NCBI GenBank assembly: GCA_016946835.1
Contig: JACVTC010000074.1
Coordinates: forward strand, 122,501-186,500
DNA length: 64,000 bases
From: Neocallimastix lanati (nom. inval.)
Taxonomy: Eukaryota > Neocallimastigomycota > Neocallimastigomycetes > Neocallimastigales > Neocallimastigaceae
Direction: 5' to 3'
The notes under the pieces were generated by a model. That model had not been told where the DNA came from, ran no database searches, and was given only the letters and a program-made list of their open reading frames with translations. Position numbers and translations under genes: made by a program. Positions 16,550 to 55,560 of this stretch are shown piece by piece (position 1 is the stretch's first letter; every line of letters starts with the position of its first letter).

Positions 16550-17575
16550 ATGACAGCTAGAAGAGGAAGACCACAATTAATCAGCGTCGAAGACTCAAAC
16601 GTCCCAAGCAAGATTAACTTCAATTATTCCAAAAATTTTAATAGAATAATTGAATTAAACACTGAAAATTATGTAGGATGGCGTAATAATATTCTATTTC
16701 TTCTAACTATATATGATTAGTAAGTTATGCAACACAAGAAAAAGTAAAGAAACTGGGTAAAAGAGACATAAAAGAAAATCTTTCCAATTATGTTATAGAC
16801 CAATTTGATCACTCGTTAGTCTATGACAAGTGAACTAATGAAAACGATATAAACACTGATATTACGGCCAAATGGATGATTTTAAACAGCCTTGGAGAGA
16901 AGACTCAAGAAATTGTACAAGGGTATGGTAAAACAGCCCATCAAGTATGGAAAATTCTTAAAGCCTCAATTACTAAAGGTGAAAAAACAAGAAAGATGGA
17001 ACTAAAAAATAAATTAGAAGAAATCAAATATTACGAAGATAAAGATATAAATATTTTTATGGCCGAACTTCAGAATACAATTGATGAATTTGATAAGATA
17101 GATACCGACCTCACCAGTAGTACAAAAATTGGTATTTTGATCAGAGCACTTCCCGAAAACCTTTGCTGGATAAATATCTTCCAATATAAAGATGATAGGC
17201 TTAAGTGTTCTTCTTATATAAGAGACACAATTCCAGAAATATTATCATCAAACCAAATGGAATCTTTTAACATGAAAATAAATGAAACTAAAAATATTTT
17301 TTATTCACAAAACAAAAATCCAAAAGAACTAAATAACAAAAGAAACGCAGAAACATTAAATATAAATAATAAAAAGAAAAATAGAACAAGAAGAAATGGT
17401 AGATGCTATTATAGTAAGAAAATGGGTCACTATTTTTTTGAATGTAATAAAAGAAATCAAAGCAAATTAAAACGAAAGAATTTTAAGAAAAATAATTATA
17501 AAAAATATTATTATAGAAATAATAAAAGAAATTATCAAAAAAAACAAGAGATATACGTATTTCATACAAAAAGAT
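16550..17575 (+). pseudogene. Copia Gag
   Basis: Capsid/nucleocapsid protein that would package the element RNA in cytoplasmic particles. Start chosen at ATG 16550 (MTARRGRPQ), before the conserved NYVGWRNNILF motif. A frameshift lies near 16715 and a TGA near 16831; the frame from 16876 is then open to 17575. The C-terminal zinc knuckle reads CYYSKKMGHYFFEC, so the second Cys of C-x2-C-x4-H-x4-C is Ser. A basic tail follows. Confidence 0.8.
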
Positions 17576-17579
17576 AATT

Positions 17580-17915
17580 ATAACACTTCTTATGCGGAAT
17601 CTTTTAGTAAAGATTATAATACTGAAAATACATTAGACATCAATCTTATTGAAGAAGATGACCAAATCAACAACATCATTACTCCTAAAAAAATTTAATT
17701 TGTTGGATACTTGATTCAGGAGCTTCTATAAACATTACTAACTGTTTAGATAAACTAATTAACATTAGAAAATGTCATGAAATGATATACTTTGCAAATA
17801 ATAAATTTTTAATTGCAAAAATATATTGGTACATTTATTGGGTATATTAATAATTATAAATTTATAATTGAAGAAGTACATTGCTCATCTGAAATAAATA
17901 AAAATTTATTATCTA
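17580..17915 (+). pseudogene. Copia aspartic protease
   Basis: The catalytic motif CWILDSGASINIT is at 17701-17739 (Asp codon at 17713). It follows Gag and precedes integrase, as expected. A TAA just upstream of the motif and later frame shifts break the frame. Confidence 0.7.
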
Positions 17916-18215
17916 TTGAACAACTCACTAAACAATTACTATATAATAATCTTTATCTATAATAATAATCAATCATGCGCAACTATTTATGATAAATACA
18001 ACAACAAAATTCAAAATGTACTCTCAAAAAGATCAAATACATTTAAAATATGGATCTTTACTCAATCACTTAATCTTAATAACAAATACGAATTAAAAAT
18101 TAATGAAGAAATTAATTATGCAAGTATGAAAATAACAGACAAAATCAATCTATGGCATAGGTGCTTTGTTCACTTTGACATTAAATCATTAAGACATAAA
18201 CTCTTAAAAAACTGA
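17916..18215 (+). pseudogene. Copia GAG-pre-integrase region
   Basis: The segment contains LWHRCFVHFDIKSL near its C-terminus, the His part of the integrase HHCC zinc module. The frame breaks at about 18213; the two Cys (RCPLCIHSKLR) follow in the next frame. Confidence 0.7.
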
Positions 18216-19539
18216 TATTAATTTAAGATGTCCATTATGTATACATTCAAAACTTAGAAACAAACCATTTCACCCATCAACAAAAACAAATTCAAATCAT
18301 ATTTTTGAATTAATACATATGGATTTGGTTGGACCTATCACAGAATCCATTTATGGTAACAAATATTTTTTTTCAATTCTTGATGATTATTCTAGATTCG
18401 GATGGGTCCTATTCCTCAAAAATAAATCAGAAACATTCTCAGCATTCTCAATTTGGTTCACTAAGATGAAAAATCAATACAAAACAAGAATAAAATTATT
18501 ACGCACTGACAACAGTAAAGAATTTACTAAATCAAAATTCAAAGAATTTTGCACCAATTCCGATATTAACCATCAATTCACTATTCCGTACAATCCTCAA
18601 CAAAATGATAAAATAGAACGACTAAATCAAACTCTCATTTATTCACCAAAAGCAATGTTACACGATTCATTGTTAAATCACCAATTCTGGGAAGATGCAA
18701 TAAATACTTCCAACTATATTTATAATCATCTACTACATAGAGGCATTAAAAATAGAATTCCATTTCCATTTGAAATTCTAAATAAGTCCAAAGTTAATTA
18801 CTCAAATATTAGAATCTTCGGTTGTAAAGTCTTTTTCTTCATACCTAGAGCATTTAGATCAAAATTCGACAATAATGCTGCTCCTGGAATATTTATAGGA
18901 TATTCTGAAAACCCCAGCGGATACAAAATTTTTGATGTAACAAATAACAAAATCATTTTATCAAGAAATGTCGAATTTTTCGAATCAAATCCTGGTAATT
19001 CTTATTCTACATTATGCCATCCCGATATTTCGAATTTTATTCCAAATAATGAAATTTGGGGAAGCAATAGTTATTGCAATAATAACACTTATACAAGTCT
19101 AATCAATAATAATCTTGTCAATCCAAACTCCAATAATTTAATAAAAACAATCAACAATAACCAAAGAAAACAAAGTAAACTAAACATAAATCAAATTAAT
19201 GGCTCAAATAATTCTATTATGAACAACACAAATACAATTAATGACAATAATAACGATAAAGACAATAATATAACTTACAATAAAAACACTAATGACAATA
19301 ATAATAAAAACATTAATTCGACAGAAATAATCCAAAGTGTAAATAATACTTCCAATATAAGCCAGAATACTTATCATGACAAAAATATCGCATCACCCAA
19401 AAATTATAATCAAAAAAGAAAATTTATAAATAATGTCTCAGAAAATGAAAAATACAAAAAACAAAAATTAAGTAATGATTACGAGAAACCTTCAACTGTG
19501 ACGATATTTATAACCTTAAAGATAAAGAAGAATGGTTAA
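18197..19539 (+). pseudogene. Copia integrase core
   Basis: Inserts the cDNA into chromosomes. The core is intact: MDLVGPI (first Asp), LLRTDNSKEF (second Asp, codon 18508) and NDKIERLNQTL (Glu, codon 18616), giving D-x35-E spacing. Later GYKIFDVTNNKI matches the copia integrase C-terminal region. After about 19080 comes a long Asn-rich linker, then a frameshift near 19505 into reverse transcriptase. Confidence 0.85.
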
Positions 19540-20170
19540 TATCTATCAACAAAGAATTAGAAAACATGAAAATGTTGAAAGTATTTAAACCCATTGAAAA
19601 AGTTCCCGAAGGTGCAAATATAATCACTATAAGATAGGTATTCAAATATAAAAAGAATTCTAAAGGAGAAATTACTAAGAGGAAATCAAGACTGGTAACA
19701 AGAGGCTATACTCAACAAGAAGGAATTGATTATCATGAAACATTTTCGCATACATTAAAATTAGACTCCATTAGAATCTTCACGCTCTTGCTGTAAAAAA
19801 TAATTTTGAAATACAACAAATAGATATTAATGCCGCTTATTTAAATGCTAAATTAAATGAAGAAGTTTATATTAAACTCCCAAAAGGACATCCTGACTAT
19901 ATAAAATGTTACTGGAAACTAAATAAAGCCATTTATAGCTTAAAACAAAGTGGAAAGGAGTGGAATGAAGAGCTCAATCAATACCTTCTTAACATTGGAT
20001 TTAAAAGATTAATAAACGAACCTTGTTTATATTTTAAAGTTGATAAAAAAAGAAAAATTTATTATGTATTCTTGCTATTTATGTTGATGATATACTACTT
20101 GCAGGTAATAGAATAATTGTAGAACGAACTAAATGATTAATTAAAAATAGATCTAAAATAAAAGATATAG
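19500..20170 (+). pseudogene. Copia reverse transcriptase, internally deleted
   Basis: Motifs in order: EWLISINKELENM, RLVTRGYTQQEGIDY, QQIDINAAYLNAKLNE (first catalytic Asp), AIYSLKQSGKEW and the active-site Tyr-Val-Asp-Asp (20080-20091). Several stops and frameshifts. Shortly after YVDD the sequence jumps straight to the RNase H start, so the thumb/connection part (roughly 100 residues or more) is missing. Confidence 0.8.
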
Positions 20171-20644
20171 GATATATTTACCGATGCAGATTATGCAGGT
20201 GATATAGAAACTAGAAGATCCACTACTAGGATTGTTATATTAATTGGAAATTCCCCAACTAGTTGGTGTTCCAAACTCCAACGTTGTATTTCAACTTCAA
20301 CAGCTGAATCGGAATATTACAGCCTAAGCGAATATTGTAAACATTATATGTGGTATATGAATCTCCTTAATAAATTGAAATTCAAAATAAAAAATATCGA
20401 AATCAATATCGACAATAAAGCTGCTATTTATAATGCCAAAAACCAATCAACCAACCCCAAGACAAAGCATATGGATATTAGAGTACATTATATAAGAGAA
20501 TTAATTAAAAATGAAAAAATAAAATTAAAATTTGTTAAGTCACAATACAATCTTTCGGATGAATTTACAAAATATTTAAACAATACTACAATGGATAAGT
20601 TTAGAAACTCTTTTTTAGTTAAAATAGACTACGTAAATTATTAA
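20171..20644 (+). pseudogene. Copia RNase H
   Basis: FTDADYAGDIETRRST (first Asp), STAESEYYSLSE (Glu) and EINIDNKAAIYNA (Asp) are all visible, and the C-terminal frame 20348-20644 is open. It joins the reverse transcriptase across the internal deletion. Confidence 0.8.
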
Positions 20645-21913: not shown

Positions 21914-21922
21914 TTACATTTA

Positions 21923-21995
21923 TACCCGAACCCGGGTTCGAACCGGAGACCTTTTGCGTGTAAAGCAAACGTGATAACCACTACACTATTCGGAT
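21923..21995 (-). tRNA. tRNA-Val (anticodon UAC)
   Basis: 73 nt, intronless. Acceptor ATCCGAA pairs with TTCGGGT (one wobble), discriminator A. A box TAGTGTAGTGG and B box GGTTCGAACCC are intact. Anticodon stem TTTGC/GCAAA encloses loop TTTACAC, anticodon TAC, reading GUA. The body (GTGTAGTGGTTATCACGTT) is typical of eukaryotic tRNA-Val. No CCA is encoded. The upstream side (right of 21995) is a repeated LTR insertion site, yet promoter and structure look intact, so the gene is probably functional. Confidence 0.95.
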
Positions 21996-22011
21996 AATTA
22001 ATTAATCGTTG

Positions 22012-22799
22012 TGTAAGAAATTGATATAAATTTTTATAATTTATTTCTATTTCTTATTAATTAATAATTATTTCATAATTATTATTCTTTAAAAAAATTT
22101 ATTTCATTTAAAAACAATTATACCAATTAATGTATTAATTGTTATATGAAAAAATGTATTTAATATAACTTCTGTATTATTTCATAGAAAAAATGTATTT
22201 AATAAAATTTCTGCATTATTTTATCCTTCTCTTTTTTATCCTTTTTCTTTTTAATTCTTTTAGTTATTAAAATCGGTTATTAAAGTTTTTCCGATTAATT
22301 ATAATTGGTTTTATTTAATAACACGATGATCAATAAGTATAGATTATTGATCAAAAATCTTTCCAGTTTTTTCTTCTAATCTTTTTCTGGAAAGAATCAT
22401 TGTTAAGATTAGAAAAATACATTTATTTTTGTAAAAATATAAATAGCTGTTGATTTTCGTCTTTAGAAAATCAAGAGTTATTATTTTAAGAAAAATATAA
22501 TAACAATAAAAGACATTAATATTTCAATTAATATAAAATAGTTATTTTAAAATTTGTCAAAAAAAATAATAAAATATTTAATAATAAAATAGATTAATAA
22601 AGTTCTTTTGATAAAAACATATTTTATTTCTCATTCATTTAAGGTCTATTATATTTTCTTATAATAAACTCTAATTTTAAAGATAAGTATTAAATTCTTA
22701 TTTTTATTTTAATTTTTATTTTAATTTTTATTTAATCTTAATAGTTTAGTTAATATTAATTATAAATAATAATTTCTATAATTTATAGAAATTATTACA
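22012..22799 (+). repeat. Solo LTR, family D, copy 1 (youngest of the tRNA-Val stack)
   Basis: 788 bp, TGTAAGAAATTGATATAAAT to AATTATTACA. Starts 17 nt (16 intervening) upstream of tRNA-Val. Duplication CGTTG (22007-22011) against AGTTG (22800-22804); the second copy includes the first TG of the next element, so D was inserted into the edge of C. Contains the hairpin chain, stem CTTTCCAG/CTGGAAAG, pseudoknot pair TTCTAATCTT/AAGATTAGAA and TATA box ATATAAATAG. Confidence 0.85.
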
Positions 22800-22802
22800 A
22801 GT

Positions 22803-23772
22803 TGATAAATAACAAAATTATTAAATTAAAATAAATAATAAAAAACAAATTCTGTCTAACTTAACCCAAAAATTAATCCATTCTAAAAAAAATTAAATCC
22901 ATATTTAATAAAAATTAATTAAATAAAAATAATTAAAATAAAATAATAATAAATTAATTAATCATTAATAATTTTAATTAAAAACTAAAATAAATTAATA
23001 AATAATATTTTTCTAAGACTACAAATAAACAAAATAATAAACAAATTTAATAAATTATAAATAACAAATAAACAAACTTATAAACATCTCAAAATTAAAA
23101 TTAACTAGTTAAATAATTTTTAAGTTACTTTTATTTAAAATAATGATTATTTTATTTATTTTATAACTCAACTTTTATAAACAAATTGTAATTAAAATAA
23201 CATTTTAAAACTCATCTTTATTAATATTTTAATTGTAAATATTGTTTAATTTAATAATAAATTATTTTTTATTTCTCTTTTATTAATTTTATTATTTTTA
23301 ATGTAAATAGTTTAAAATCAAAGAAAAATATAAAAACATGTAAATATTTCTTATAAATTATTCTTTATTATTAATTATTTAATAAATTATTATAGATATT
23401 TTATTAGTTTTTAATAATCAATTTTTATGATTATTAATTATTTTGATAAATTATTATATATTTTATTAGTTATTAATAATCAATTTTATTATTAAAATTT
23501 AAAATAAATTAGTATAAATAATAAATATTTCATTTTATTATTTTATTAGTTTTAACAATTATTTTATTAATTTAAACAAAATTAATTATTAAATAAATAA
23601 AGATTAATATTAAAATAAAAATAAATTTTTTTTAATAAAACATTTTTGTGTTTAATAATAAAACATATTTATTTTTTTTAAATTTCTTAAATCAATTTTA
23701 TTCAGTATTTATCCTTTTATTCACTTCTACAAAATTTAATTTTTGTAGATTAAGAATATTAGGTATAAATCA
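22803..23772 (+). repeat. Solo LTR, family C, copy 1
   Basis: 970 bp, TGATAAATAACAAAATT to GGTATAAATCA. Removing the later D insertion places its left flank at TCGT (22006-22009), equal to the right flank TCGT (23773-23776). The small open frame at 23648-23830 spans its end and is not a gene. Confidence 0.8.
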
Positions 23773-23777
23773 TCGTT

Positions 23778-24746
23778 TGGTAAAGAATGAATTAATAACC
23801 TTTATTTTATTATTAATAATTCTTTACTAAATTGTACTTTCCTATATTCTTCATAACCTAAACCTCATTGTAAATTTAATTTATTTTGATATAAATTAAT
23901 TTTAACTTGTAAATAATGTAAGTAAATTTTAATTAATTACTTTATTGTTATATTATTAAATATATGTATATATTAAAATACAATTGTAAATATTAAAATT
24001 ATACTTTTAAGATACTAAATTATTAAAATTATTAATTAAATATTATTATAAAAATTATTATAAACTATTAATATTATAAAATTATTAAAATTATTAAATA
24101 TTATTATAAAAATTTATTTATTATAACTATTAAATATTATTATAAAATTATTAAGATTATTAATTATATTTATTATTAAAAATTATTATTAAAAATTATT
24201 ACTTATTATAAAAATTATTATTTAAATATTATCAAATTTATTAATTAAATATTATAAAAATTTTATTTTATTTTTGAAAATAATTACAAGTATTATTTAA
24301 AATAATTAAAGATTATTAAATTTATTATATTAATCTTTAAAAACAATTTATTTAACTTAAAAATATCAAAGAAAATAGTAAAAACTATTTTCTATATATT
24401 TATTTTATAATTATTTTTAATTAAATTATATTTGAATATTATATTATTATATTTATAAAAATTAAAACAAAAATGAATTATTGATATAAAATTAATTCAA
24501 TAATTCTATAAAATTACTTAAATTATAAACAACTAATTATACTTTAAATTCATAAAAAAATATAAATATTGTAAATATTTCTTAAAAATTAAATATGTGT
24601 ACTTCAAAAAATAATATAAAATTTTATATTAATAAATAATAAATACTTTTTAATAAAAAAATTTTTTCTTTGTTAAAATCAAAGCAGGGTAATACCCGTC
24701 CCCCCTGCTTGATTTTAAATCAATAAGAATCACCCCGAGTCTACCA
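23778..24746 (+). repeat. Solo LTR, family G, copy 1
   Basis: 969 bp, TGGTAAAGAATGAATT to CCCCGAGTCTACCA, perfect 4-bp duplication CGTT (23774-23777, 24747-24750). Opens with a foldback (TAAAGAAT with ATTCTTTA). Near its end is a GC-rich hairpin at 24675-24716, AAATCAAAGCAGGG against CCCTGCTTGATTT, conserved in all three copies. Confidence 0.85.
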
Positions 24747-24751
24747 CGTTT

Positions 24752-25225
24752 TGTAAGAAATTACTTATAAAATTAATTATAAATAATTTCTTAACTACAA
24801 ATTAACATTAATTATTATTAATTAACATTAATTTGAGAAAATAAAATTAAATATAATTAAATAAATATATAATAATATTAATAAATAATTATACTTAACT
24901 TAAATATAAGATAGAGTTTATTATAGAAAGTTTATAATAAACAATAACACAAAAGGAATAAAAGACACAAATATTTATAAAATATGTTTTATTAAAAAGG
25001 GTTTTGTTTATTAATTAATTATTTTATTTGAATTATTATTTATTATAAAAATTCTAAAATAATAACTCTTGATTTCTCGAAGAGAACTCAAGAGAATCAA
25101 ATATATATAAATTAATAAATAAATATTATTGGTTTAAATAAATACAATAATTTAATGTATTAAATTAATGTATTAAATAAGAAAGATAGATAAATTTTAT
25201 AATAAATTTATCTAAATTTCTTACA
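24752..25225 (-). repeat. Solo LTR, family H, copy 1
   Basis: 474 bp, inverted ends TGTAAGAAAT and TTTCTTACA, perfect 5-bp duplication CGTTT (24747-24751, 25226-25230). Orientation is minus from the reversed TATA-like ATATATAAATT and hairpin CTCTTGATTTCTC/GAGAACTCAAGAG, shared in plan with family A. Two near-identical copies lie at 51925 and 55087. Confidence 0.85.
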
Positions 25226-25231
25226 CGTTTA

Positions 25232-26189
25232 TATAAGAAATAATAATTATTTATTAATAAATAATTACTATTTCTTAGTCTTTATAATTATTGATAATAA
25301 TTATAAATTTATTTAAATTATAATTAATTCATACATTGAAATATTATTATCAAATTTATTAAAAATATAATTATTCATACACTAAAATAATATTAAAAAT
25401 TTATTTAAATAACTATTATATATTCTTTTATTAATATTATTAATTTTATTTAGTTATTCATTTAATTATTAAGTTAATGTAAACATTAGTTTTATTTATT
25501 TTGTACATTGTACATTTAAAAGAACAATTAATAAATTTCTGTATTTTTTAAATATAGTTTTATGTTAATAAGTTTAGATTAGATTTTAAAAATAATATTT
25601 AGAAAAATAGAATAATTTAGATCATTCCGGTTATTATTTATTTTTCCTTTTATTTGATGATCTAAATTAAAATTTAGAAAATCGATATATTAAGGTTTTA
25701 TCCAAATATAAAATAATATATTTGGTTTTACTTAATATATACGATGATTGATATGAATAGAATATCGATCAAAACTTATCTAGTTTTTTCTTCTAATATT
25801 TTTCTAGATAAGATAATTTTTAAGATTAGAAAAACTTTTTATTTAACCTTAATTTAATAAAAAAAATATAAAAAGAGCTCTTGATTTCTCTTTAAGAAAT
25901 CAAGAGTTATTATTATAAAAAAGATAGTTATAATAATAACAATATTACATTATAAACTTTAATAAATTAATAAAACATTTTATTCAAAAACATATTTTTT
26001 TAAAACCAAATTTAACTTTATACAAATATTTCTTCCTTTGGTTTTTGTGTTGTTATTATAATTAATTTTATAATATACTCTTTTTTAGGTAAAATTTTTA
26101 TTTTTATTGTATTTCTCAACTTAATGAATTAGTCATTAAATTGAAGTTAATAATCATATTTAGTAATAGAACTTAGTATGATTATTACA
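25232..26189 (+). repeat. Solo LTR, family A, in the tRNA-Val stack
   Basis: About 958 bp; first bases mutated to TATAAGAAATAATAATT, end GATTATTACA. Flanks GTTTA and GTTAA. Carries the hairpin chain (ATATATTAAG/CTTAATATAT, CCAAATAT/ATATTTGG, CTTATCTAG/CTAGATAAG), TATA box and start hairpin. Confidence 0.75.
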
Positions 26190-26191
26190 GT

Positions 26192-26933
26192 TAATACAGA
26201 TTGGAATTCTTAAGTATAAAATTATTAGAAAGCTTGAATAATATCTAACCTATTCAACAACAAATTAATAAATTAAAATATGAAATTAAAATCATAATAA
26301 AAAAAATTTATTTTAATTAAATTCTAAAACTCGAAATTATACTTTAATTCTATTTTAATTTTTAAAATAATGAAATACTAATGTTAATTAATTTCTCTTT
26401 TTAATTAAAAGTAAATAGTTTGTAAACAATTTTCTCTTTTATTATTATTTTGAATTCTTTGTTTATAATAATTCTTGTATTAATTGTTTATTTGTTTATT
26501 TTATTGTTTATTTTTATAAATATAATTATTCTTAATTGTTTTATTATTAAAAATTGTAAATACTTTAAATTATTGTAAAAATATAAATACTTGTAAATAT
26601 TTTATAAAATTAATTTCTCGTTGTTATTAGAAATGTAATAAAAAAATAATAACTAAATATTATATTAATAAATAATAATAAAAATTAATAAATAATAATA
26701 AAAATTAATAAAAATTAATAAATAATAATAAAAATTAATACTAAACACAAAGAAATGTATAATTTTGAAAAATTAATAACAATTCAGTGTTAAGCTAGAA
26801 TAATAATAACTTAATTATTAATAATAATAAAACAAATTCATTTATATTAAATTTTATATTAAATCAAACTTGATACATCTATTATCACTTTTGAAGTAAT
26901 AACTTCAAATTAAGATAATAGAATCGTTTGTCG
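26192..26933 (+). repeat. Solo LTR, family F, copy 1 (oldest of the stack)
   Basis: 742 bp, TAATACAGATTGGAATTC (TGATACAG in the better copy at 59181) to GAATCGTTTGTCG. The right flank is TCGT (26934-26937); its left flank, after removing five later insertions, is the TCGT beside the tRNA at 22006-22009. Confidence 0.7.
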
Positions 26934-26938
26934 TCGTT

Positions 26939-41702: not shown

Positions 41703-41773
41703 TGCGTTAACCGGGAATCGAACCCGGGCCATTTGCTTGGAAGGCAAATATTCTACCTCTATACTATTAACGC
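41703..41773 (-). tRNA. tRNA-Gly (anticodon UCC)
   Basis: 71 nt, intronless. Acceptor GCGTTAA/TTAACGC is perfect, discriminator A. Anticodon stem TTTGC/GCAAA with loop CTTCCAA, anticodon TCC, reading GGA. T arm CCGGGTTCGATTCCCGG is perfect and forms the B box; GTATAGAGGTAGAA gives the D arm/A box. No CCA encoded. The upstream (right) side carries an LTR 16 nt away. Confidence 0.95.
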
Positions 41774-41789
41774 TTTTCTATAATCATTG

Positions 41790-42668
41790 TGTAATAATTC
41801 CATTAAGAACTAACTCAAAATAGAATTATTAACTACAACTTAACGACTAATTCATTAAGTTGAGAAAATAAAATAAAATAAATTTTTTTTTACCTTTAGA
41901 GTAGAGTTTATTATAAAATTAATTATAATAATAACACAAAAAGTAAGAGAAGAATTGTTTGTATAAATTGATTTTAAAAATATGTTTTTGAATAAAATAT
42001 TTTTATTAATTTATTAAAGTTAAAAATATAAAATTGTTACTATTATAACTATGTTTTTTATAATAATAACTCTTGATTTCTCAAAGAGAACTCAAGAGCC
42101 TTATTTATATTTTTTTATTAAAATAAGGTTAAATAAGAAAGGGTTTTCTAATCTTAACAAATCTCTTATCTAGGAAAAGATTAGATAGAAAAACCTAGAT
42201 AAGTTTTCGATCGATATTCTATCCATATCGATCATCGCATTAATTAAGTAAAACCGATTACTTCTAAAAAGTAATTGGAAAAAATCTTAATTAACCGATT
42301 TTCCAATCTAATGATCGAAAATAAAAGAATAAAATAATAAAAGATATTTCGATCATATAATTTATCCTTATATTAAAAATATAAAATTAAATAGTTAATA
42401 AAATACAGAATACATTATAAAATACAGAATACATTATAAAATACAGAATAAAATACAATACAAAATACATTAGTTACAGTAGAGAATTTAACATATTGTA
42501 AATATATTATTTAAAATTAATTAAATAAATTTTGTTAAATTAATGAATATTTAAAATTAAATTAAATAAATTTAATAAATATTATATGTAATTAAATAAA
42601 GTTATAGTTATAATAACTTAACTAAGAAAATATAATTATTTGTTAGCAAATAATTATAGATTCTTACA
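41790..42668 (-). repeat. Solo LTR, family A, minus strand, at tRNA-Gly
   Basis: 879 bp, TGTAATAATTCCATTAAG to GATTCTTACA. Exactly 16 nt separate it from the tRNA 5' end. Duplication CATTG (41785-41789) against TATTG (42669-42673), the latter sharing TG with the next element. Full reversed hairpin/pseudoknot block at about 42060-42310. Confidence 0.85.
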
Positions 42669-45334: not shown

Positions 45335-45477
45335 AGCAAATAAAATTATTATTTTCAAAAGTTACTAAAATATATTGTTTTAAAAATTGATTCGATATTA
45401 AATTACCTATTAAATTATATTTTGAAAGTTGGATTTCCCAAATTTATTCGTATTTAATCACCTCATATTTAGACAAA

Positions 45478-46389
45478 ATGTCCAAGGAAACAACTTTGAG
45501 CTTTAAAGAATTGAAAAAAGAATTGAGAGATATTGTGAAACTTAGCAAGGACAATTTGGATATTAAGTCCTGGGCTACTAAATTAAAACTATGGATCAAG
45601 ATACAAGGTATCACAGATCCAGAAACAATATTTAATGCTTGTTTACTTACCAGCTCTGGTGAAGTACAACGCGTTATTGAAGATTTGGGAGAAGATAGTG
45701 ATGATGAAAGTGATGATTCATCAGATGAAGAAGAAGAAGATGATGAAGAAGAAAATGTTGATGATGATATTAAATTTCCTTCCCTTGAAAAAATTATTTC
45801 AAGTCTTGAAAATTTTTACGGTATTAAAGAAGACCAAAATTTACTTCTTAAAGAACTTCGTGCAATGCGAATTAAAAGAAACGAAAAGATTAAAGACTTT
45901 AATGTAAGATATAGAACTTTGTACACTAAACTTGATAAAAAGAGAAGAAAGCGCATTGGTGTACTAGATTATATTGATTCTATTCAAAATAATTATGAAA
46001 CCTGGAAGAAATTATCCCTTAAAGATGATATAAGTATGGATAAAGCTTTCAAAATTGCCGAGAAAGAAGATAGACTTTCTGTAAGGAACAATAATATTAA
46101 TACCTATAATGTTAATAATTCCCAACATAATCAAAATAATCAAAACGGTAATACTTCAAGACTTTATCCTAAAAGAAGAAACGAAACTTTCCAAACAAGT
46201 CAAACAAATAATAAACCGAAACCTCAAGATATTATTGAAGAATCAACCCAGAAAATGAGAAACTTATCCGTTAAAACTTGCTTCTTCTGTAAGGAAGAAG
46301 GTCATTACTCATACTATTGCCCTCAATTAAATAAGATTATGGAAAAAAATAAAAAAGAAATATATTCCAAAAAGTCTTTAAACTTCTAA
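45478..46389 (+). CDS. gag: Gypsy Gag polyprotein
   Basis: 303 residues. Forms the particle and binds genomic RNA. N-terminal capsid-like part, a very acidic run (DDESDDSSDEEEEDDEEE, about residues 75-95), further helical capsid sequence (LLLKELRAMRIKRNEKIKDF), an Asn/Gln-rich linker and a zinc knuckle CFFCKEEGHYSYYC (residues 268-281, perfect C-x2-C-x4-H-x4-C). The ATG at 45478 is the first in frame after the leader and is preceded by AAA. The reading frame is intact. Its last codons overlap the frameshift signal that leads into pol. Confidence 0.9.
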   Translation: MSKETTLSFKELKKELRDIVKLSKDNLDIKSWATKLKLWIKIQGITDPETIFNACLLTSSGEVQRVIEDLGEDSDDESDDSSDEEEEDDEEENVDDDIKFPSLEKIISSLENFYGIKEDQNLLLKELRAMRIKRNEKIKDFNVRYRTLYTKLDKKRRKRIGVLDYIDSIQNNYETWKKLSLKDDISMDKAFKIAEKEDRLSVRNNNINTYNVNNSQHNQNNQNGNTSRLYPKRRNETFQTSQTNNKPKPQDIIEESTQKMRNLSVKTCFFCKEEGHYSYYCPQLNKIMEKNKKEIYSKKSLNF

Positions 46390-46409
46390 ACGGGAGCAGA
46401 AGCACTCCC
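46377..46409 (+). promoter_or_regulatory. -1 ribosomal frameshift signal between gag and pol
   Basis: Slippery heptamer T TTA AAC at 46377-46383, in the correct phase (gag codons TTA AAC), six bases before the gag stop ends. After an 8-nt spacer follows the stem GGGAG (46392-46396) / CTCCC (46405-46409) with loop CAGAAGCA. A slip of -1 enters exactly the frame of the downstream pol. Confidence 0.8.
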
Positions 46410-49400
46410 AATGATAAAAAAATAGCTTCATTAAATAATTTACAAAATAATACTTTTACTAAGAATACTCCAATTGATAATAATTCCTTTAATGAAGAAT
46501 CTGAAGAATCTGATTTTAGTGACACAACTGAAAGTTAGGATGATATCATTATAAATGCTATAAAAAGAAAAATGAATGATAATAACAGCGAAAAAGAAGA
46601 AAATAATTCCAAGAAAGTACATAAAAGTTTAAAAGATAATCCACGTCCTTTCGCAACTCCTGCTTTAAGAAAGAAGAAAGAAAATGAGCTACATAATAAA
46701 CCCAATAAAGTTTATAAAAATCAAATACTTCCTTCAATTTTAACTCAACCAAATATTAACAAAGAAAAACAAAAAGAAAAGGAATTAAGAAATATGACAA
46801 GAGTAAGAGAAAGTAAAGAAGAAAACAACAATTATTCATCAAAAGGAAAGGAAAAAGTTGAATCTGAAGATATACTTGTAATCGATAATGAAATAGAAGA
46901 TCTAGAAATGAATAAAGATAATCAACAAAATAAAACTAATACTTTGGAAAAATTAATTTCAACAAAAACTAAAGAAACTAATAATGGAAATACTCAGTTA
47001 GTAAAAAGGAATATCAAAATGATGAATAATAAAGAACTTTACAATATTATGGATGATTTAAATAATCTTAAATCCAGTATTACGATAGGTCAACTCTTGA
47101 ATGCATGTCCGAAAATTCGTTCACAATTAACTCAAGGTTTAAAGTTAGAAAAATCTAAAATAATTGGAACTGTAGACAATGTAATAGCACGAACTTTATT
47201 AGTAAATAACTATGATCATAGCTACATAAGTAAAAGTACTGAAGTAGCCGAAGAAGACTTAGCAATGGTGGATGCAAGTGTTGACGGAGTACTAGGAAAA
47301 CTTTTAATTGATTCTTGTAGTAACCTAAGCATCGTTACTAAGCAGTATTTTGATAAATTACCTGGTGAATATGAAACAGTTGGAAAAAGTCGTGGAAGAA
47401 TCCAACTAGCAACACAAGATGAAGAATACTCGGAAGGAATTATTGTTCGATTACCAGTAAAAATTAATAATTATGAATTTAATGCGGACTGTAGAATTAT
47501 TGAGAAAGAAGACTCTTTTTATGATATGTTAATAAACTTTAAAACTCAAATCGATCATTGTTTATTTATTCATCCGACCTTAAACAGTTTATGTAAACTT
47601 TTGTCAGAAAGTGAATACGAAGAAATAGCTAAAATAAATAATCAATATTATGATGAAGAAAGTATAATTTGCACTATTAGAAAAGTTAAAGAAACGAATA
47701 ATGAAAATGAAATTATAAAGGAATTAACTCCAATGGAATTTATTGAGAGTGATGAATTTTTAAGTACCTTAAATAAAGATTATAAAGAACAAATTATTAA
47801 AATTCTCAAAGAAATGATTGACATAGTTGTTACTTCAACAGAAGAACTAACTCCTTTTAAACTTTCACCACATAAGATCCGTTTAAAAGCTAATGCAAAG
47901 CCAGTAAAATTAAGAAGTTATAGGTTAACTAAATTAAAATCAGATATCTTAAAAGAAGAACTTACAAAGCTTATTAAGAAAGGATTGATAGAACCATCCT
48001 GTTCAGAATGGTCATCTCCAGTAGTACTTATTCTAAAACAAAATGGAAAGTGGCGCTTGTGCATTGACTACCGAAAAGTCAATGATATGACAGAAAAAGA
48101 TTCTTATTCAGTTCCATATATAGATGAAATTTTTGATAGTCTCGGAGGAGCTAAAATATTTACAACTCTTGATTTATTTTCTGGTTTTCACCAAATCTTA
48201 ATGGATGAAGAAAGCGTTGAAGTAACCACTTTCACTACTAAGTTTGGAAATTATCAATTTAAGGTTATGCCTTTTGGACTTACTGGAGCTCCCTCAACCT
48301 TCCAAAGAGAAATGAATAAAATTTTATTCCCTTTTATTGGTGAATTTGTTTACGTATTTATTGATGATGTTTTGATCTATTCAAAAAGTATCGAAGAACA
48401 TTTAATTCATATTAAACAAGTATTAGAAGTATTTAAAGAAAACAAGTTAAAAATTAATATTGAAAAGTGCCATTTTCTTCAATCTGAAGTTGATGTACTA
48501 GGTCACAAACTTACTACTAAAGGATTAAGTCCCATGGAAAGTAAAATAACAGCTATTAAGAAGTGGGAAGCCCCTTCATCAATTCATGAATTAAGATCAT
48601 TTCTAGGAGCAATAGGATATTATCGTGACTTTATTCCTAAATATGCTCAAATTACCTCACCTTTATGTAAATTATTGAAAAAGAATACTAAATATGAATG
48701 GAATAAAGAACAACAAGAAAGCTTTGAACTCCTAAAAGAAAAATTAATCAATGCACCTATTCTAAAATTTCCGTCATTTGACAAACCTTTTATCATTAGA
48801 ACTGATGCTTCGTATAATGGAATTGGTGGAGTTCTTTTACAAAAAGAAGAAGAAACCGGTAAGGAGCATCCAATACATTTTATAAGTAGAAGTTTGAAGA
48901 AAGCTGAAAAGAATTATGGTATCACAGATTTGGAAGGAACCGCTTTGTTTTACTGTATGACTAAATTTAAATCTTATATTGAAGGAAATCCATTACCTAC
49001 AACTATTTACACAGATCATAAACCATTAGTTGGTTTATTTAAGAATAAAGAACCTTTGAATGCAAGGCAAACAAGATGGTGTCTAACCGCTAGTATGCTT
49101 GGAATTAATATAAAATATGAATCAGGCAAAAAGATTGTGTTAGCTGATGCTCTTTCAAGAATGAAAAGTAAGGAAGAGAGAAAGATATTATTAACAAAAA
49201 TTACTAATGGAAATAATGAAGAATTATTATCTAAAGTTATAAAGGAATTTATTAATGAAAAGTTTACTGTTATTGATGGTGAAGATTACTTTATCGACAA
49301 TGGAAATTATAGAAAATTAATAACGGATGAAAATAAAAGGTTTAAATTAATTTTAGAAGCTCATAATATTGGCCACGAAGGATATTACAAAACATATCAA

Positions 49401-50387
49401 AGACTTAAGAAAAACTTTTATTGGAATCATATGATTAAAGATATCAAAAGAATTGTTAGTAATTGTGAAAAATGCCAGTTAAATCGTCCTCAACCATATC
49501 CAGAACCAACCGAAAACCATCCAACTAAAGTGGAGGGTCCCTTTGTGCATTTAGGATTAGATATTATAGGACCGTTACCAAAAACAAGAAATAATAATCA
49601 ATATATTATAGTAACTGTTGATTACTTTACCAAATGGGTTGAAGCCGAACCCACTGAAAACATAACTTCCTCTGATATAATTAAATTTTTAATAAATGTT
49701 TTTACAAGACATGGTGTGCCTCAAGTTATTACCACTGATAATGGAGCCCAATTCACCTCTGACATGACAAAAATCTTTCTTGACCTTTATGACGTTTATG
49801 TAAAATTCATAGCTATTTATCACCCTGAATCCAATGGTCTTACTGAAAATCGAAACAAAGAAATTGGAAAATTACTTCGTTTATTAGGAAGGAAAAATCA
49901 AGATTGGGATGAAGTTTTACCTTCTGCTTTATGGGCACTTCGAACTACCAAAAATACAGCTACTGGACATTCTAGTTTTGAATTAGTATATGGAAGAGAA
50001 GACCAACAGCCTTATGATATAGCCATAAGAACAATTGAAAATGCAGGTAAATCATATGATGAAATTTTAATGGAAAAATTTGTTCGTCATTATCAATGGA
50101 CTAGAGAAGCATGCGAAAATGTGAAGAATGCTAACAAGTATTGGGCAACAAGACGAGAAGAACAAATAAGTATGAAAAAAGGAAAAGAATTAAAGGCTGG
50201 TGATCTTGTTCTTGTTAGAAACTTTAGCCGCACTAAGCTAGAACCATATTACAATGGACCATTTAAAATTTTAAAAATTCAATTCAACACGGCAACCCTA
50301 ATCGATCAGAAGACTGGAAAGCAACTCGATAGGAATGTTCACTTTAAAAATTTAGTAAAGTTTAACTCCGCTTACAGAGAAGCTTGA
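46383..50387 (+). CDS. pol: Gypsy Pol polyprotein (PR-RT-RNase H-integrase)
   Basis: Copies element RNA to DNA and integrates it. Residues are numbered from ATG 46572 (1271 residues), but the frame is open back to the frameshift site except for one TAG at 46536-46538, so pol is probably made as a Gag-Pol fusion. Protease LLIDSCSNLSIV (Asp247; Cys replaces the usual Gly); RT TTLDLFSGF (Asp534) and FIDD (Asp598-Asp599); RNase H IIRTDASYNGIGG (Asp745); integrase zinc module (H-x-H, NCEKC), then Asp997, Asp1056, Glu1092 with 35-residue D-E spacing; C-terminal GPF/Y module (YYNGPFKILKI). No chromodomain. PR-RT-RH-IN order is diagnostic of Ty3/gypsy. Confidence 0.92.
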
Positions 50388-50405
50388 GTCTTCGTCGGGG
50401 CATCT

Positions 50406-51234
50406 TGATAAGAATGTACTAAATAATGCATTCTTAATTAAATCTACGATTTATTTCTAATACATTATGTGTACATTATTATTTTTGTACTTTAATAAAT
50501 TTTTAAATCCAAAGATCAAAAATTAAATCAAAAATTATATTAAACTTTATATTTTTATATTAAATCTTATATTAATAGTAATATTTTTATATATTTAAAA
50601 CTTATATTAGCAATATTAATAATAAATCTTATTTTTTTTTTTTATATTAATAAGGAAAATTTGTATTAATAATATTTTTATATATTGATAATTAAAAATT
50701 TATATATTATATTTTAACTTTTATTATAAAATTTTATATCGAAATGTTTTATTTTATATTGAAAAATGTTTTATTTTATTAAAAACCTTTATATTAGAAT
50801 AGTATTTTTATTTTTATTTGAATATTTTAACAGATTGTAATAAAAATTATAGCCAATTAAATAAATTCTTATTAGTAATATTTTAGATATTTTAAAAAAA
50901 AAAAAAAAAAAAAAATGTTTTATTAATATTATAAATGTATTTTATTTATATTGTTATAATTAAATTTTATATAATTGATTATAAAACTCAATTTAAATTT
51001 AATAGTTTTTATAAAAAAAAAAAAAAAATAAATAAAATGTAATTTAGTGGCAAGAACAACTTTTATGCCTTGAAAAAAAGTATAAATAGTTGTAAATTTT
51101 GCTACCAATTTTTAAAAATCATCAAATAAAATCAAGTAAAATTAATAAAATAAATAAATAAAAAAAATAATAAATAAATAAATAAAATTTGTGTTTCTTA
51201 CTTTATTTTTATTTAATTCTCTAAAACCTTAACA
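50406..51234 (+). repeat. Putative gypsy 3' LTR
   Basis: TGATAAGAATGTACTAAAT (foldback closed by GCATTCTTAATTA) to CTAAAACCTTAACA, 829 bp, starting 18 bp after the pol stop. The preceding GTCGGGGCATCT is a weak polypurine tract. TATA-like GTATAAATAG near 51080. Homopolymer A runs at 50896-50915 and 51015-51028. Confidence 0.55.
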
Positions 51235-51924: not shown

Positions 51925-52394
51925 TGTAAGAAATTACTTATAAAATTAATTATAAATAATTTCTTAACTACAAATTAACATTAATTATTACTAACATTAA
52001 TTTGAGAAAATAAAATTAAATATAATTAAATAAATATAAAATTATATAAATAAATAATTATACTTAACTTAAATATAAGATAGAGTTTATTATAGAAAGT
52101 TTATAATAAACAATAACACAAAAGGAATAAAATACACAAATATTTATAAAATATGTTTTATTAAAAATGGTTTTGTTTATTAATTAATTATTTTATTTGA
52201 ATTATTATTTATTATAAAAATTCTAAAATAATAACTCTTGATTTCTCGAAGAGAACTCAAGAGAATCAAATATATATAAATTAATAATTAAATATTATTG
52301 GTTAAAATAAATACAATAATTTAATGTATTAAATTAATGTATTAAATAAGAAAGATAGATAAATTTTATAATAAATTTATCTAAGTTTCTTACA
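51925..52394 (-). repeat. Solo LTR, family H, copy 2
   Basis: 470 bp, nearly identical to the copies at 24752 and 55087, indicating recent activity. Flanks ATATA and TTGCT do not match. Confidence 0.8.
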
Positions 52395-52395
52395 T

Positions 52396-52809
52396 TGCTC
52401 CCTTTACTTAATGAATTTGTATAAATTCATTATCATAAAAGAAGTAGTAAGTTTAAAATAAAAATTATAATTAACCAAAAAAAATATAAAATTATATAAT
52501 TTATTGAAAGTTTTGCTAACCTTAACTTTTTTACATCTAGAGAAAAGATTAGCGGAAAAATTCTAGATGAATCAATATTAAGTAAAACCAATTAACTTGG
52601 GAAAACCTTAATATTGTTTTCTAACTAATATAAGTGAGTAAATAATTATAAATTAAATAAAATAAATATAATTACTAAGTGTATAAATAAATATAAAGTT
52701 AAATAAAATGACTATATTATTAAATGAATAAATAAATATTAAATTAAATAAATTATAATAACTAAGAAATGTAAATGAATTATTAATAAATTTATTTGTA
52801 TTTCTTACA
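52396..52809 (-). repeat. Short A-like LTR (family V)
   Basis: TGCTCCCTTTACTTAATG to TATTTCTTACA. Retains the reversed A block: GCTAACCTT with AAGATTAGC and CATCTAG with CTAGATG. A second start, TGCTCCTTTTCATTTGAAT, begins at 52811. Confidence 0.55.
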
Positions 52810-52810
52810 T

Positions 52811-53960
52811 TGCTCCTTTTCATTTGAATTGTTCAATGAAAGAAGAACAATTTAAGAAATAATAAATTAAGAAATATTAAAAAGAAATAAAATTTAAATA
52901 AAATTAAAATAAATATTTAATTGCAATTTCAATTTAAAAAATTGAAATTTAAATTTTGAATTAAAATTTATTTTAAATAAATAATTAAATGAACAATAAT
53001 TTATAAATTTATATTATATATTATATATATTTTGTATTAATAAATAAATAAATAATAATAATAATTAATTTTACAATATATATATATTGTATATTATTCA
53101 TTAAATGAATAAAAATAATAATAATAATTTGAATTTTAAATATAATTTTTCATATATATTAAATAAATAAATATTAATAATAATTAAATGAACAATAATT
53201 TATAAATTTATATTATATATTATATATATTTTGTATTAATAAATAAATAAATAATAATAATAATTAATTTTACAATATATATATATTGTATATTATTCAT
53301 TAAATGAATAAAAATAATAATAATAATTTGAATTTTAAATATAATTTTTCATATATATTAAATAAATAAATATTAATAATAATTTATAATTTTATATTAT
53401 ATTTATCTTTATATTATTCATTAGATGAATAAGTAAGTAAAAATTTAAATTATACATATGTATTATTTATTAAATAAATAAATAATAATATTTTATAATT
53501 TTTTTTTTTTATATTATATTTTATATGTATAATTATACAACAAATAAATAAATATAATTTATAATTTAATTATTACACAGTAAATAAATAAAAGTTCATA
53601 TTTTTAGTTTATTTACTTTTTATGATATTTATTTTTATTATTCAATAAACAAATGAATAATATTAATTTATAATTTTATATTATAAATATTATGTATATC
53701 TACTTAAATAAATAAATAATAATTTAAAATTTTATAATTTTTATATTATATTTTATTTATAATTTTTTTTAGTGTATAAGTTTATACACAAATATGAGAA
53801 TTACTCTCATAATATTACATGTAGAAATTAAATATATAATTAATAAATAATTATTTTATTATTTTATAATTATATATTAGTAAATAAATTAAATAATTAA
53901 ATTTTATAATTTTGTCAACAAATAAACCATAATAAATGGTTTAACAGAAAGCATTATCAT
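52811..53960. repeat. AT-rich segment with 199-bp tandem duplication
   Basis: 52981-53378 holds two almost identical 199-bp units (ATAATTAAATGAACAATAAT at 52981 and 53180) rich in AATAAATAAATA and palindromic ATATATAT runs. Otherwise only (AAAT)n-type simple sequence. Confidence 0.75.
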
Positions 53961-54258
53961 TCAATCTAAATTGAACGGCTTCTGCTATTGGTGTTAGTGT
54001 TACACCTGTTGACTATTCTACATGTTAAATTATTATTTATTTATAATTATTTTATTTATTTATTTATTTATTTATTACTTACTATTTGTTATTTATTTAT
54101 TTATTTATTATTTATTTATATTATCATTATTATAATTATTATTATATTATTATTATTATTAAAATTATTTATTATTTGAAATTATTTAATTATTAAAAAT
54201 AAAAATTTCAAATACTTATCTTTTTTAAATTATTTATTTATTTATTTATTTTATTTTG
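53961..54258. repeat. TTTA/TTA simple repeats
   Basis: After a short GC-richer stretch (GCTTCTGCTATTGGTGTTAG near 53979), the segment is mostly (TTTA)n and (TTA)n. The 63-codon open frame here is a by-product. Confidence 0.7.
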
Positions 54259-54500
54259 TTTATTTTTGTTTTCTTGTTTTTTATTTTTGTTTTGTTTTTG
54301 TTTTTGTTTTTTGTTTTTGTTTTTGTTTTTGTTTTGTTTTTGTTTTTGTTTTTGTTTTTGTTTTTGTTTTTGTTTTTGTTTTTGTTTTTGTTTTTGTTTT
54401 TGTTTTTGTTTTTGTTTTTGTTTTTGTTTTTGTTTTTGTTTTTGTTTTTGTTTTTGTTTTTGTTTTTGTTTTTGTTTTTGTTTTTGTTTTGTTTGTTTGT
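54259..54500. repeat. (TTTTTG)n microsatellite
   Basis: About 240 bp of the hexamer GTTTTT, perfect over some 180 bp, with 1-2 base variants at the ends. It produces long Phe/Leu/Val and Phe/Cys frames that are not genes. Confidence 0.95.
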
Positions 54501-55086
54501 TTGTTGCTTATTTTATTTCATTTTATTTTATTTTATTTTTTATTTTTTTTTTTTTTTTTTTTTTTTAATAAGAAAATATATATATATAATGTATATAATG
54601 TATATAATGTTATATATAAAAACAATTATATTAAAATATAAATATAATATTATAATAGATAAATATGTTATATAAAATAAAATAAAGCAAAATAGTTAGT
54701 ATTTAATATTGTTAATTTTTATGAAATTTATAAAGACTTATTTTTAAAAGTAAATAGGCAAAGTAAACAGAATAAGTGTTGTCATATTATTATAAAGTTA
54801 TAATGTTTAATATATATAATAATAAAGAATTGTTAGTCAATGTAATAATAAATTAAACAAAATAAATAATATATATATGACATAAACAAACATAAACAAT
54901 GAAAAGAAAAATAAAAAATAAACAAAAAAAAATTTATAAATTTAAATTGAGAGAAAGAAAAAATTTCGTAAATAATATAAAATGAATTTATTTAATTATT
55001 CCATTATAATTATAATTATTATTTTTTGTTATATTCATATTAAATTATTTATAAAATATTTTCTTCCTAAAAAGAAGAGTTATTAT
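54501..55086. other. AT-rich spacer
   Basis: T run at about 54542-54566, TATATAATG triplication near 54582-54612. No gene or complete repeat recognised. Confidence 0.5.
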
Positions 55087-55560
55087 TGTAAGAAAATACT
55101 TATAAAATTAATTATAAATAATTTCTTAAATACGAATTAACATTAATTATTACTAATTAACATTAATTTGAGAAAATAAAATTAAATATAATTAAATAAA
55201 TATAAAATAATATAAATAAATAATTATACTTAACTTAAATATAAGATAGAGTTTATTATAGAAAGTTTATAATAAACAATAACACAAAAGGAATAAAATA
55301 CACAAATATTTATAAAATATGTTTTATTAAAAATGGTTTTGTTTATTAATTAATTATTTTATTTGAATTATTATTTATTATAAAAATTCTAAAATAATAA
55401 CTCTTGATTTCTCGAAGAGAACTCAAGAGAATCAAATATATATAAATTAATAATTAAATATTATTGGTTAAAATAAATACAATAATTTAATGTATTAAAT
55501 TAATGTATTAAATAAGAAAGATAGATAAATTTTATAATAAATTTATCTAAGTTTCTTACA
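55087..55560 (-). repeat. Solo LTR, family H, copy 3
   Basis: TGTAAGAAAATACTTATAA to AGTTTCTTACA, 474 bp, nearly identical to copy 2. Inserted at the left edge of LTR-T. Confidence 0.8.

What the first reader, a model, noticed from the sequence alone, without database searches (positions are those of the whole stretch)
21923..26937. Six different LTRs stacked at one target 11-16 bp upstream of tRNA-Val, in order of age
Seen in sequence: going outward from the tRNA are D (duplication CGTTG, second copy AGTTG), C (TCGT), G (CGTT), H (CGTTT), A (GTTTA/GTTAA) and F (TCGT). Each duplication is explained only if every new element entered the same TCGTT target next to the tRNA and pushed the earlier ones away, so distance equals age (D youngest, F oldest). 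Known: Ty3 and some Dictyostelium elements target Pol III genes. A perfect multi-family stratigraphy of one site, with both 4-bp and 5-bp integrases converging on it, is unusual. Inference: several retroelement lineages here recognise Pol III initiation factors.
Basis: partly seen in the sequence, partly recalled or inferred. Interest (0 to 1): 0.95.

Follow-up and report, generated by a model that had tools for sequence, protein, structure and literature searches.

The report
Retrotransposons stacked in front of tRNA genes
In what looks like a gut-fungus genome, many kinds of retrotransposon land about 15 bases in front of tRNA genes, so that new arrivals seem to push older ones outward and leave a layered record of past invasions.

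Summary
The stack is real. Six LTRs (D, C, G, H, A, F) lie end to end upstream of tRNA-Val, separated only by 4- or 5-bp target duplications; each is a genome-wide repeat family. It is common here, not an oddity. In 50 tRNA genes fetched without regard to LTRs (30 Val, 10 Arg, 10 Asn-Arg pairs) I read an LTR-type end 11-21 nt upstream (mean 15.2, SD 1.7); a strict recurrence test supports 41 of 50, against 0 of 30 downstream flanks and 1 of 18 tRNA-headed SINE copies. Two deep Ty3/gypsy clades take part: one with 5-bp duplications and a self-priming site, one with 4-bp duplications; families V, C, G, F of the second type all point away from the gene (18 of 18). Best explanation: integrases guided by the Pol III initiation complex, Ty3-like, with a target that survives each insertion. 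Ages rise from D to C to the outer layers; the outer four are unresolved. The kind is known (Ty3, Tj1, DGLT-A). Apparently new: host lineage, near-saturation, many families, the 4-bp class and its outward orientation. Protein contacts are inferred, not tested.

The parts
21922..21996 (-). tRNA-Val(TAC), the anchor of the stack; Rfam limits 21923-21995
22012..22799 (+). LTR D (788 bp), innermost layer; full-length relatives are single-ORF Ty3/gypsy; 5-bp duplication CGTTG 22007-22011 / AGTTG 22800-22804
22803..23772 (+). LTR C (970 bp), second layer; 4-bp duplication TCGT 23773-23776; its first two bases lie in D's duplication
23778..24746 (+). LTR G (969 bp), third layer; 4-bp duplication CGTT 24747-24750
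24752..25225 (-). LTR H (474 bp), fourth layer; 5-bp duplication CGTTT 24747-24751 and 25226-25230; element strand taken as minus from the side on which the primer site lies in other copies
25232..26189 (+). LTR A (958 bp), fifth layer; 5-bp duplication GTTTA 25227-25231 / GTTAA 26190-26194 (one mismatch); starts TA
26192..26933 (+). LTR F (742 bp), outermost layer; 4-bp duplication TCGT 26934-26937; starts TA
41703..41773 (-). tRNA-Gly(TCC), anchor of a second stack in the window
41790..42668 (-). LTR B, 16 nt upstream of tRNA-Gly; duplication CATTG/TATTG (4 of 5) whose outer copy holds the TG of the next LTR
45391..50384 (+). Ty3/gypsy gag and pol ORFs of family V
50406..51234 (+). 3' LTR of family V, the LTR whose edge lies before 8 of the 50 tRNA genes
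51925..55560 (-). H element with both LTRs (51925-52394, 55087-55560); its only ORF of 150 aa or more is a 153-aa low-complexity one; part of the outer stack behind tRNA-Gly

Best explanation
Each layer is an LTR (here solo) left by a Ty3/gypsy retrotransposon that integrated at the Pol III initiation site of the tRNA gene. Shown: position, duplication lengths, family identities, two polymerase clades, part of the order. Inferred: the integrase is guided by the TFIIIB-type complex that TFIIIC sets at a fixed distance from the internal A and B boxes. Because those boxes lie inside the gene, an insertion does not destroy the target; the complex re-forms in front of the newcomer's LTR end, and the next element, of any of these families, cuts within a few bp of the same place. 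Older elements move outward, and LTR-LTR recombination turns many into solo LTRs. The 4-bp clade docks in one orientation (5' end to the gene); the 5-bp clade docks both ways.
For: Fixed offset: in 50 of 50 genes I read an LTR-type edge at 11-21 nt, mean 15.2, SD 1.7. Strict test, a TG word at 10-21 nt that recurs in another locus behind different flanks: 41 of 50 (24/30 Val, 8/10 solo Arg, 9/10 Asn-Arg), against 0 of 30 downstream flanks and 1 of 18 SINE copies. Allowing TA as well gives 45 of 50, but TA words also hit 9 of 30 downstream flanks and 6 of 18 SINE copies. In Asn-Arg pairs the edge lies before Asn, none between, 10 of 10. Duplications vary between sites. Offsets rebuilt for the stack (C 14, G 15, F 14; D 16, H 16, A 17, from the coordinates) match the class means elsewhere: 14.7 for 18 genes of V, C, G, F; 16.7 for 6 of D, H, B. 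Same tRNA flanks with different LTRs: L006/L007, L013/L014, L022/L023, L068/L069. Order by duplication overlap, inner younger: D/C, A/F, B/next at tRNA-Gly, L030, L035, L049, all with the tRNA in view and the outer edge known by recurrence or close family likeness; I saw none the other way in those stacks.
Against: Nothing here touches TFIIIB, TFIIIC or the transcription start. Full A and B boxes are not enough: 11 of 18 SINE copies keep the full head and only 1 has an LTR edge. Of 14 D insertions seen on both sides, 4 lie directly at a tRNA gene (window, L035, L046, L049); one more (L044) lies one layer out; the rest lie between LTRs or unassigned sequence with no tRNA in view (a tRNA beyond a 6-kb element would be outside my 10-kb stretches). 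At L034 LTR B went in beside D with no tRNA in view. Of those 14, L038 and L045 lack a matching duplication and L040 matches at 4 bp only. Nine of 50 edges fail the strict test, five of the 41 rest on one other locus, and the edge list was drawn from the same sequences.
Confidence: 0.85

Rival explanations
1. LTR elements insert at random and only those in the harmless gap before tRNA genes survive selection.
For: The gap before a tRNA gene is known to be a safe site; no insertion lies between Asn and Arg, where it would cut into the Asn gene.
Against: SD of 1.7 nt over 50 genes, an edge read at all 50, in a genome that is mostly AT-rich in the window; no TG edge on the downstream side (0 of 30) and 1 of 18 at SINE copies.
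Confidence: 0.05
2. The elements recognise a DNA sequence (TCGTT-like) rather than the transcription complex.
For: At this one site all six duplications overlap TCGTT.
Against: Duplications elsewhere are unrelated (CAGCT, TGTGG, TTATG, TAAT, TTAT, AATAA, GTAAA), and the outward flanks of the 50 genes show no evident shared motif by eye (not tested formally).
Confidence: 0.03
3. The layers were not added inside-out: some elements entered the outer copy of a neighbour's duplication, or the array grew by recombination between stacks.
For: Three of the five junctions are symmetric; the outer four ages are unresolved; by nearest genome copy G looks older than H (my arithmetic); D copies without matching duplications (L038, L045) suggest recombination between stacks.
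Against: Six overlaps in stacks with the tRNA in view give inner-younger and I saw none the reverse; a random hit into a 5-bp outer duplication three times over is unlikely.
Confidence: 0.1

Closest known systems
Ty3 (Saccharomyces cerevisiae)
   Same: Ty3/gypsy domain order; D and V pol both hit the Ty3 chain 7q5b best; insertion about 15 bp before the mature tRNA; 5-bp duplication as in the D class (Ty3 facts: passages of PMC5006619 and PMC8632968).
   Different: No chromodomain match in D or V pol, whereas the Ty3 integrase meets TFIIIB with one (PMC8632968, passages); the second clade makes 4-bp duplications; Ty3 inserts in both orientations (PMC5911963, passage).
Tj1 (Schizosaccharomyces japonicus)
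   Same: Ty3/gypsy, just upstream of tRNA genes, fixed orientation, 5-bp duplication (PMC4600332, passages).
   Different: Tj1 points the same way as the Pol III gene and was mapped in S. pombe; the 4-bp families here point away from the gene (18 of 18).
DGLT-A (dictyostelids)
   Same: Ty3/gypsy without chromodomain, 13-33 bp (average 15) upstream of tRNA genes (PMC5006619, passages).
   Different: Either orientation (PMC5911963, passage); 20 insertions in D. discoideum (PMC5006619, passage); here at least two clades and about 25 edge types share the site.
Tf1/sushi-type elements
   Same: D carries the SH3_Tf2-1 domain and a primer site that is the exact complement of 12 nt inside its own LTR, like self-priming Tf1 (Tf1 priming recalled, from no call).
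   Different: Tf1 goes to Pol II promoters (PMC7175516, passage); several D copies lie at tRNA genes.

Membership tests
Ty3/gypsy LTR retrotransposons | pol order RT-RNaseH-integrase, flanked by LTRs | tested here: met
   for D; for the pol of V and for the pol next to a G-family LTR (L036); C, F, A, B and H have no complete pol in the sequence held
Ty3-type Pol III-targeted elements | insertion in a window of a few bp about 15 bp upstream of the mature tRNA | tested here: met
   50 of 50 genes by reading, mean 15.2 nt, SD 1.7; 41 of 50 by the strict recurrence test
Ty3-type Pol III-targeted elements | 5-bp target duplication | tested here: inconclusive
   D exact in 9 of 14, H 3 of 4, B 3 of 4, A 0 of 2 (4 of 5 and 3 of 5 bases); not met for G (exact 4 bp in 4 of 5), nor for C and F at the stack (4 bp); V not seen
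Ty3-type Pol III-targeted elements | integrase chromodomain contacting TFIIIB | tested here: not met
   no chromodomain in the Pfam scan of D or V pol; a diverged one cannot be excluded by sequence
Ty3-type Pol III-targeted elements | dependence on TFIIIB | not testable with these tools
   needs biochemistry
Tf1-like self-priming elements | primer site complementary to the element's own LTR | tested here: met
   ATAATAACTCTT directly after the D LTR is the reverse complement of AAGAGTTATTAT inside it; ATAATAACTC also follows A in L045 and B in L028. Use as a primer not tested

The most novel reading that the evidence does not exclude
Two anciently separate Ty3/gypsy integrase clades have converged on the same Pol III initiation site with different cut spacing (4 and 5 bp) and different docking rules, one of them locked to point away from the gene.
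Probability: 0.55. Interest if true: 0.82.

Novelty: new variant of a known kind. Interest (0 to 1): 0.72.

Why it matters
Targeting of Pol III genes is known from some yeasts and social amoebae (PMC5911963, passages). Here about 25 edge types from at least two clades end within a few bases of one spot at the 50 genes examined. That allows direct tests: what in an integrase sets 4- against 5-bp cuts and the orientation at the same target, and whether stack order dates element families. Orientation-locked insertion was described as known only for Tj1 (PMC4600332, passages, 2015), in the opposite sense. The stacks may also mark which tRNA-like sequences are truly occupied by the Pol III machinery, since only 1 of 18 tRNA-headed SINE copies is hit.

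Tried and rejected
Tried: Rfam scan (gathering cut-off) of the window and the 20 D loci for other Pol III genes: only tRNA matches, none new at D sites without tRNA. B-box pattern to sample tRNA genes of all types: 18 of 20 sampled places were SINE copies, one a non-tRNA match (L089), one a tRNA pair (L090); the SINE copies served as a control. Dating layers by nearest genome copy: rough only, and G then looks older than H, against strict order (my arithmetic). C internal region (L031): gag-like and protease ORFs only, no polymerase. Copia-like element 16834-20641: not part of the stack, not followed. Considered and rejected: sequence-specific target; selection alone.

Dropped before counts: L024 (same place as the window) from the search bank; tRNA calls of unclear type in L040 and L043; D loci, picked by LTR, are not among the 50 genes; 8 of the 38 Val genes were not fetched; of the 63 tRNA matches listed I fetched the first 20 rows, all of one tRNA type; of 461 B-box matches 100 were listed and 20 of those taken.
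Full report
What is there. The window is C710:122501-186500 of an unnamed 199-Mb genome in 762 contigs, 11-26% G+C by 4-kb steps. Its Ty3 pol (residues 480-1200) is 99% identical to a protein on an unnamed ENA contig (P0001), and among the 120 hits listed of 3096 the only ones named after a fungus are from Orpsp1_1 (73%, 56%, 55%, 50%), which I take as Orpinomyces, a genus of Neocallimastigomycota. So the host is most likely an anaerobic gut fungus; the species is not shown.

The stack. Upstream of tRNA-Val six LTRs lie end to end. Each is a genome-wide repeat: among the 40 or so best candidates scored per search, full-family copies match at 98-100% for D, 91-97% for A, 97-99% for H and 93-97% for F; C and G copies are.

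What the families are. D has full-length copies with LTRs about 5.6 kb apart and 100% identical in the three pairs held (L037, L045, L049); intact ORFs of 1331 aa exist in two of them, with capsid, protease, RT, RNaseH, integrase and SH3_Tf2-1 domains. A primer site follows its LTR (ATAATAACTCTT) that is the complement of a stretch inside the LTR. The same site follows A in L045 and B in L028 and lies at the matching end of H copies. By my reading these families give 5-bp duplications: exact in D 9 of 14 (two more with one mismatch, L040 at 4 bp only, L038 and L045 none), B 3 of 4, H 3 of 4, A 0 of 2 (4 of 5 and 3 of 5 bases). Family V (window 45391-51234) and the pol beside a G-family LTR (L036) form a second clade; the RT tree of 33 rows, rooted at the midpoint, separates the two with full support and puts the animal and plant rows on the D side. 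C's protease ORF is nearest to this second clade. G, C and F give 4-bp duplications: G exact in 4 of 5, C and F at the stack; another F copy has one mismatch. V's duplication length was not seen.

The site is general. I read 30 of the 38 tRNA-Val genes and 20 tRNA-Arg(TCT) genes, taken without reference to LTRs. Ten of the Arg genes stand alone; ten lie 14-16 nt behind a tRNA-Asn. An LTR-type edge lies 11-21 nt upstream of the Val, the solo Arg or the Asn gene in 50 of 50, mean 15.2, SD 1.7, about 25 edge types. That edge list was drawn from these sequences. A separate test asks whether a 24-letter word that begins at the edge recurs in another locus behind different flanks. With words that begin TG at 10-21 nt it supports 41 of 50 (Val 24/30, Arg 8/10, Asn 9/10; five of the 41 by one other locus only) and 0 of 30 downstream flanks. 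With TA allowed too it gives 45 of 50 (L002, L014, L023, L025 and L054 fail), but TA words are noisy in this AT-rich DNA and hit 9 of 30 downstream flanks. No LTR lies between Asn and Arg in 10 of 10; an insertion there would cut into the Asn gene, so selection may explain that part. Other tRNA genes in view agree: Gln, Ala, Thr, Trp, Gly and two unassigned ones in L048; all but Gly came with D loci and none is in the 50.

Control with SINE copies. A B-box search (461 matches against 10 for the reversed pattern), sampled at every fifth of the 100 rows listed, hit a tRNA-headed SINE in 18 of 20. Eleven of the 18 keep the full head. One, L078, has a V LTR edge at 15 nt; the other 17 have no TG word that recurs at 8-26 nt (TA words hit 6 of 18). 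So promoter boxes alone do not attract insertion.

Order and age. D's outer duplication includes the first two bases of C, and A's includes the first three of F, so D came after C and A after F. C/G, G/H and H/A read the same in either order. In other stacks with the tRNA in view, overlaps at B/next (tRNA-Gly), L030, L035 and L049 also give inner-younger; L046 and L017 look alike but their outer edge is not independently known. L042 fits too, if V's 5' end marks the gene side. At L034 B is younger than D with no tRNA in view. Private changes rise from D (0) through C (0.5%) to the outer four (0.8-1.05%): trend p 0.015, heterogeneity p 0.096, outer four alone p 0.64; few other copies were at hand for F (2) and A (4). 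Distance as age is thus supported for the inner layers and unresolved among the outer four.

Orientation. V, C, G and F have their 5' end towards the gene in 18 of 18 genes (8, 6, 2, 2; 16 different flanks, orientation from primer and pol positions). The other type goes both ways: in the same 50 genes 6 D, H and B copies point away and 2 of the kind seen in L022 (duplication not measured) point towards; H in the stack and D at L035 also point towards. Tj1 was described as the only element known with fixed orientation, in the sense of the gene (PMC4600332, passages).

Mechanism. Shown: fixed site, two cut spacings, two clades, repeated use of one site. From established knowledge: Ty3 is guided by TFIIIB (PMC5911963 and PMC8632968, passages). 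Inferred: the same kind of tether here; the target re-forms after each hit because the promoter is inside the gene.

Known or new. A search of the held library for Neocallimastix with retrotransposon and tRNA genes found 0 papers. Related searches listed, by title, none on tRNA-gene targeting in gut fungi; I saw those as listings only, and the library lacks most subscription journals.

Noticed in passing
L071-L088; L043 near 2300; genome-wide: A tRNA-headed SINE family with tail ACCAAATAATCGGAT, in 7 of 18 copies cut short at its 5' end; it makes up 18 of 20 sampled B-box matches (461 in all).
   Followed up: partly
L051-L054, L056-L058, L065, L068, L069: tRNA-Asn and tRNA-Arg(TCT) occur as close pairs with a 14-16 nt spacer in 10 of 20 Arg genes read.
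   Followed up: partly
G000 contig C555, 170-400 kb: 34 of the 63 tRNA matches listed lie here, some about 540 bp apart: probably a local amplification of tRNA-Arg(TCT) (no copy of this contig was fetched).
   Followed up: no
L006/L007, L013/L014, L022/L023, L068/L069: tRNA genes with the same flanks carry different LTRs at the same place.
   Followed up: partly
window 41703-63250: A second and larger stack behind tRNA-Gly with B, a further LTR, the V element, a D-like LTR, an H element, two G, F, C, D and A-like copies.
   Followed up: partly
window 16834-20641: Copia-like ORFs on the other side of tRNA-Val, about 1.3 kb downstream of the gene.
   Followed up: no
L090 (contig C94): tRNA-Arg(ACG) and tRNA-Val(AAC) two bases apart, with no evident LTR edge in front.
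   Followed up: no
L034 3700-6800: LTRs facing each other with D and B between them and no tRNA in view; perhaps a lost tRNA gene or a joint between two stacks.
   Followed up: partly
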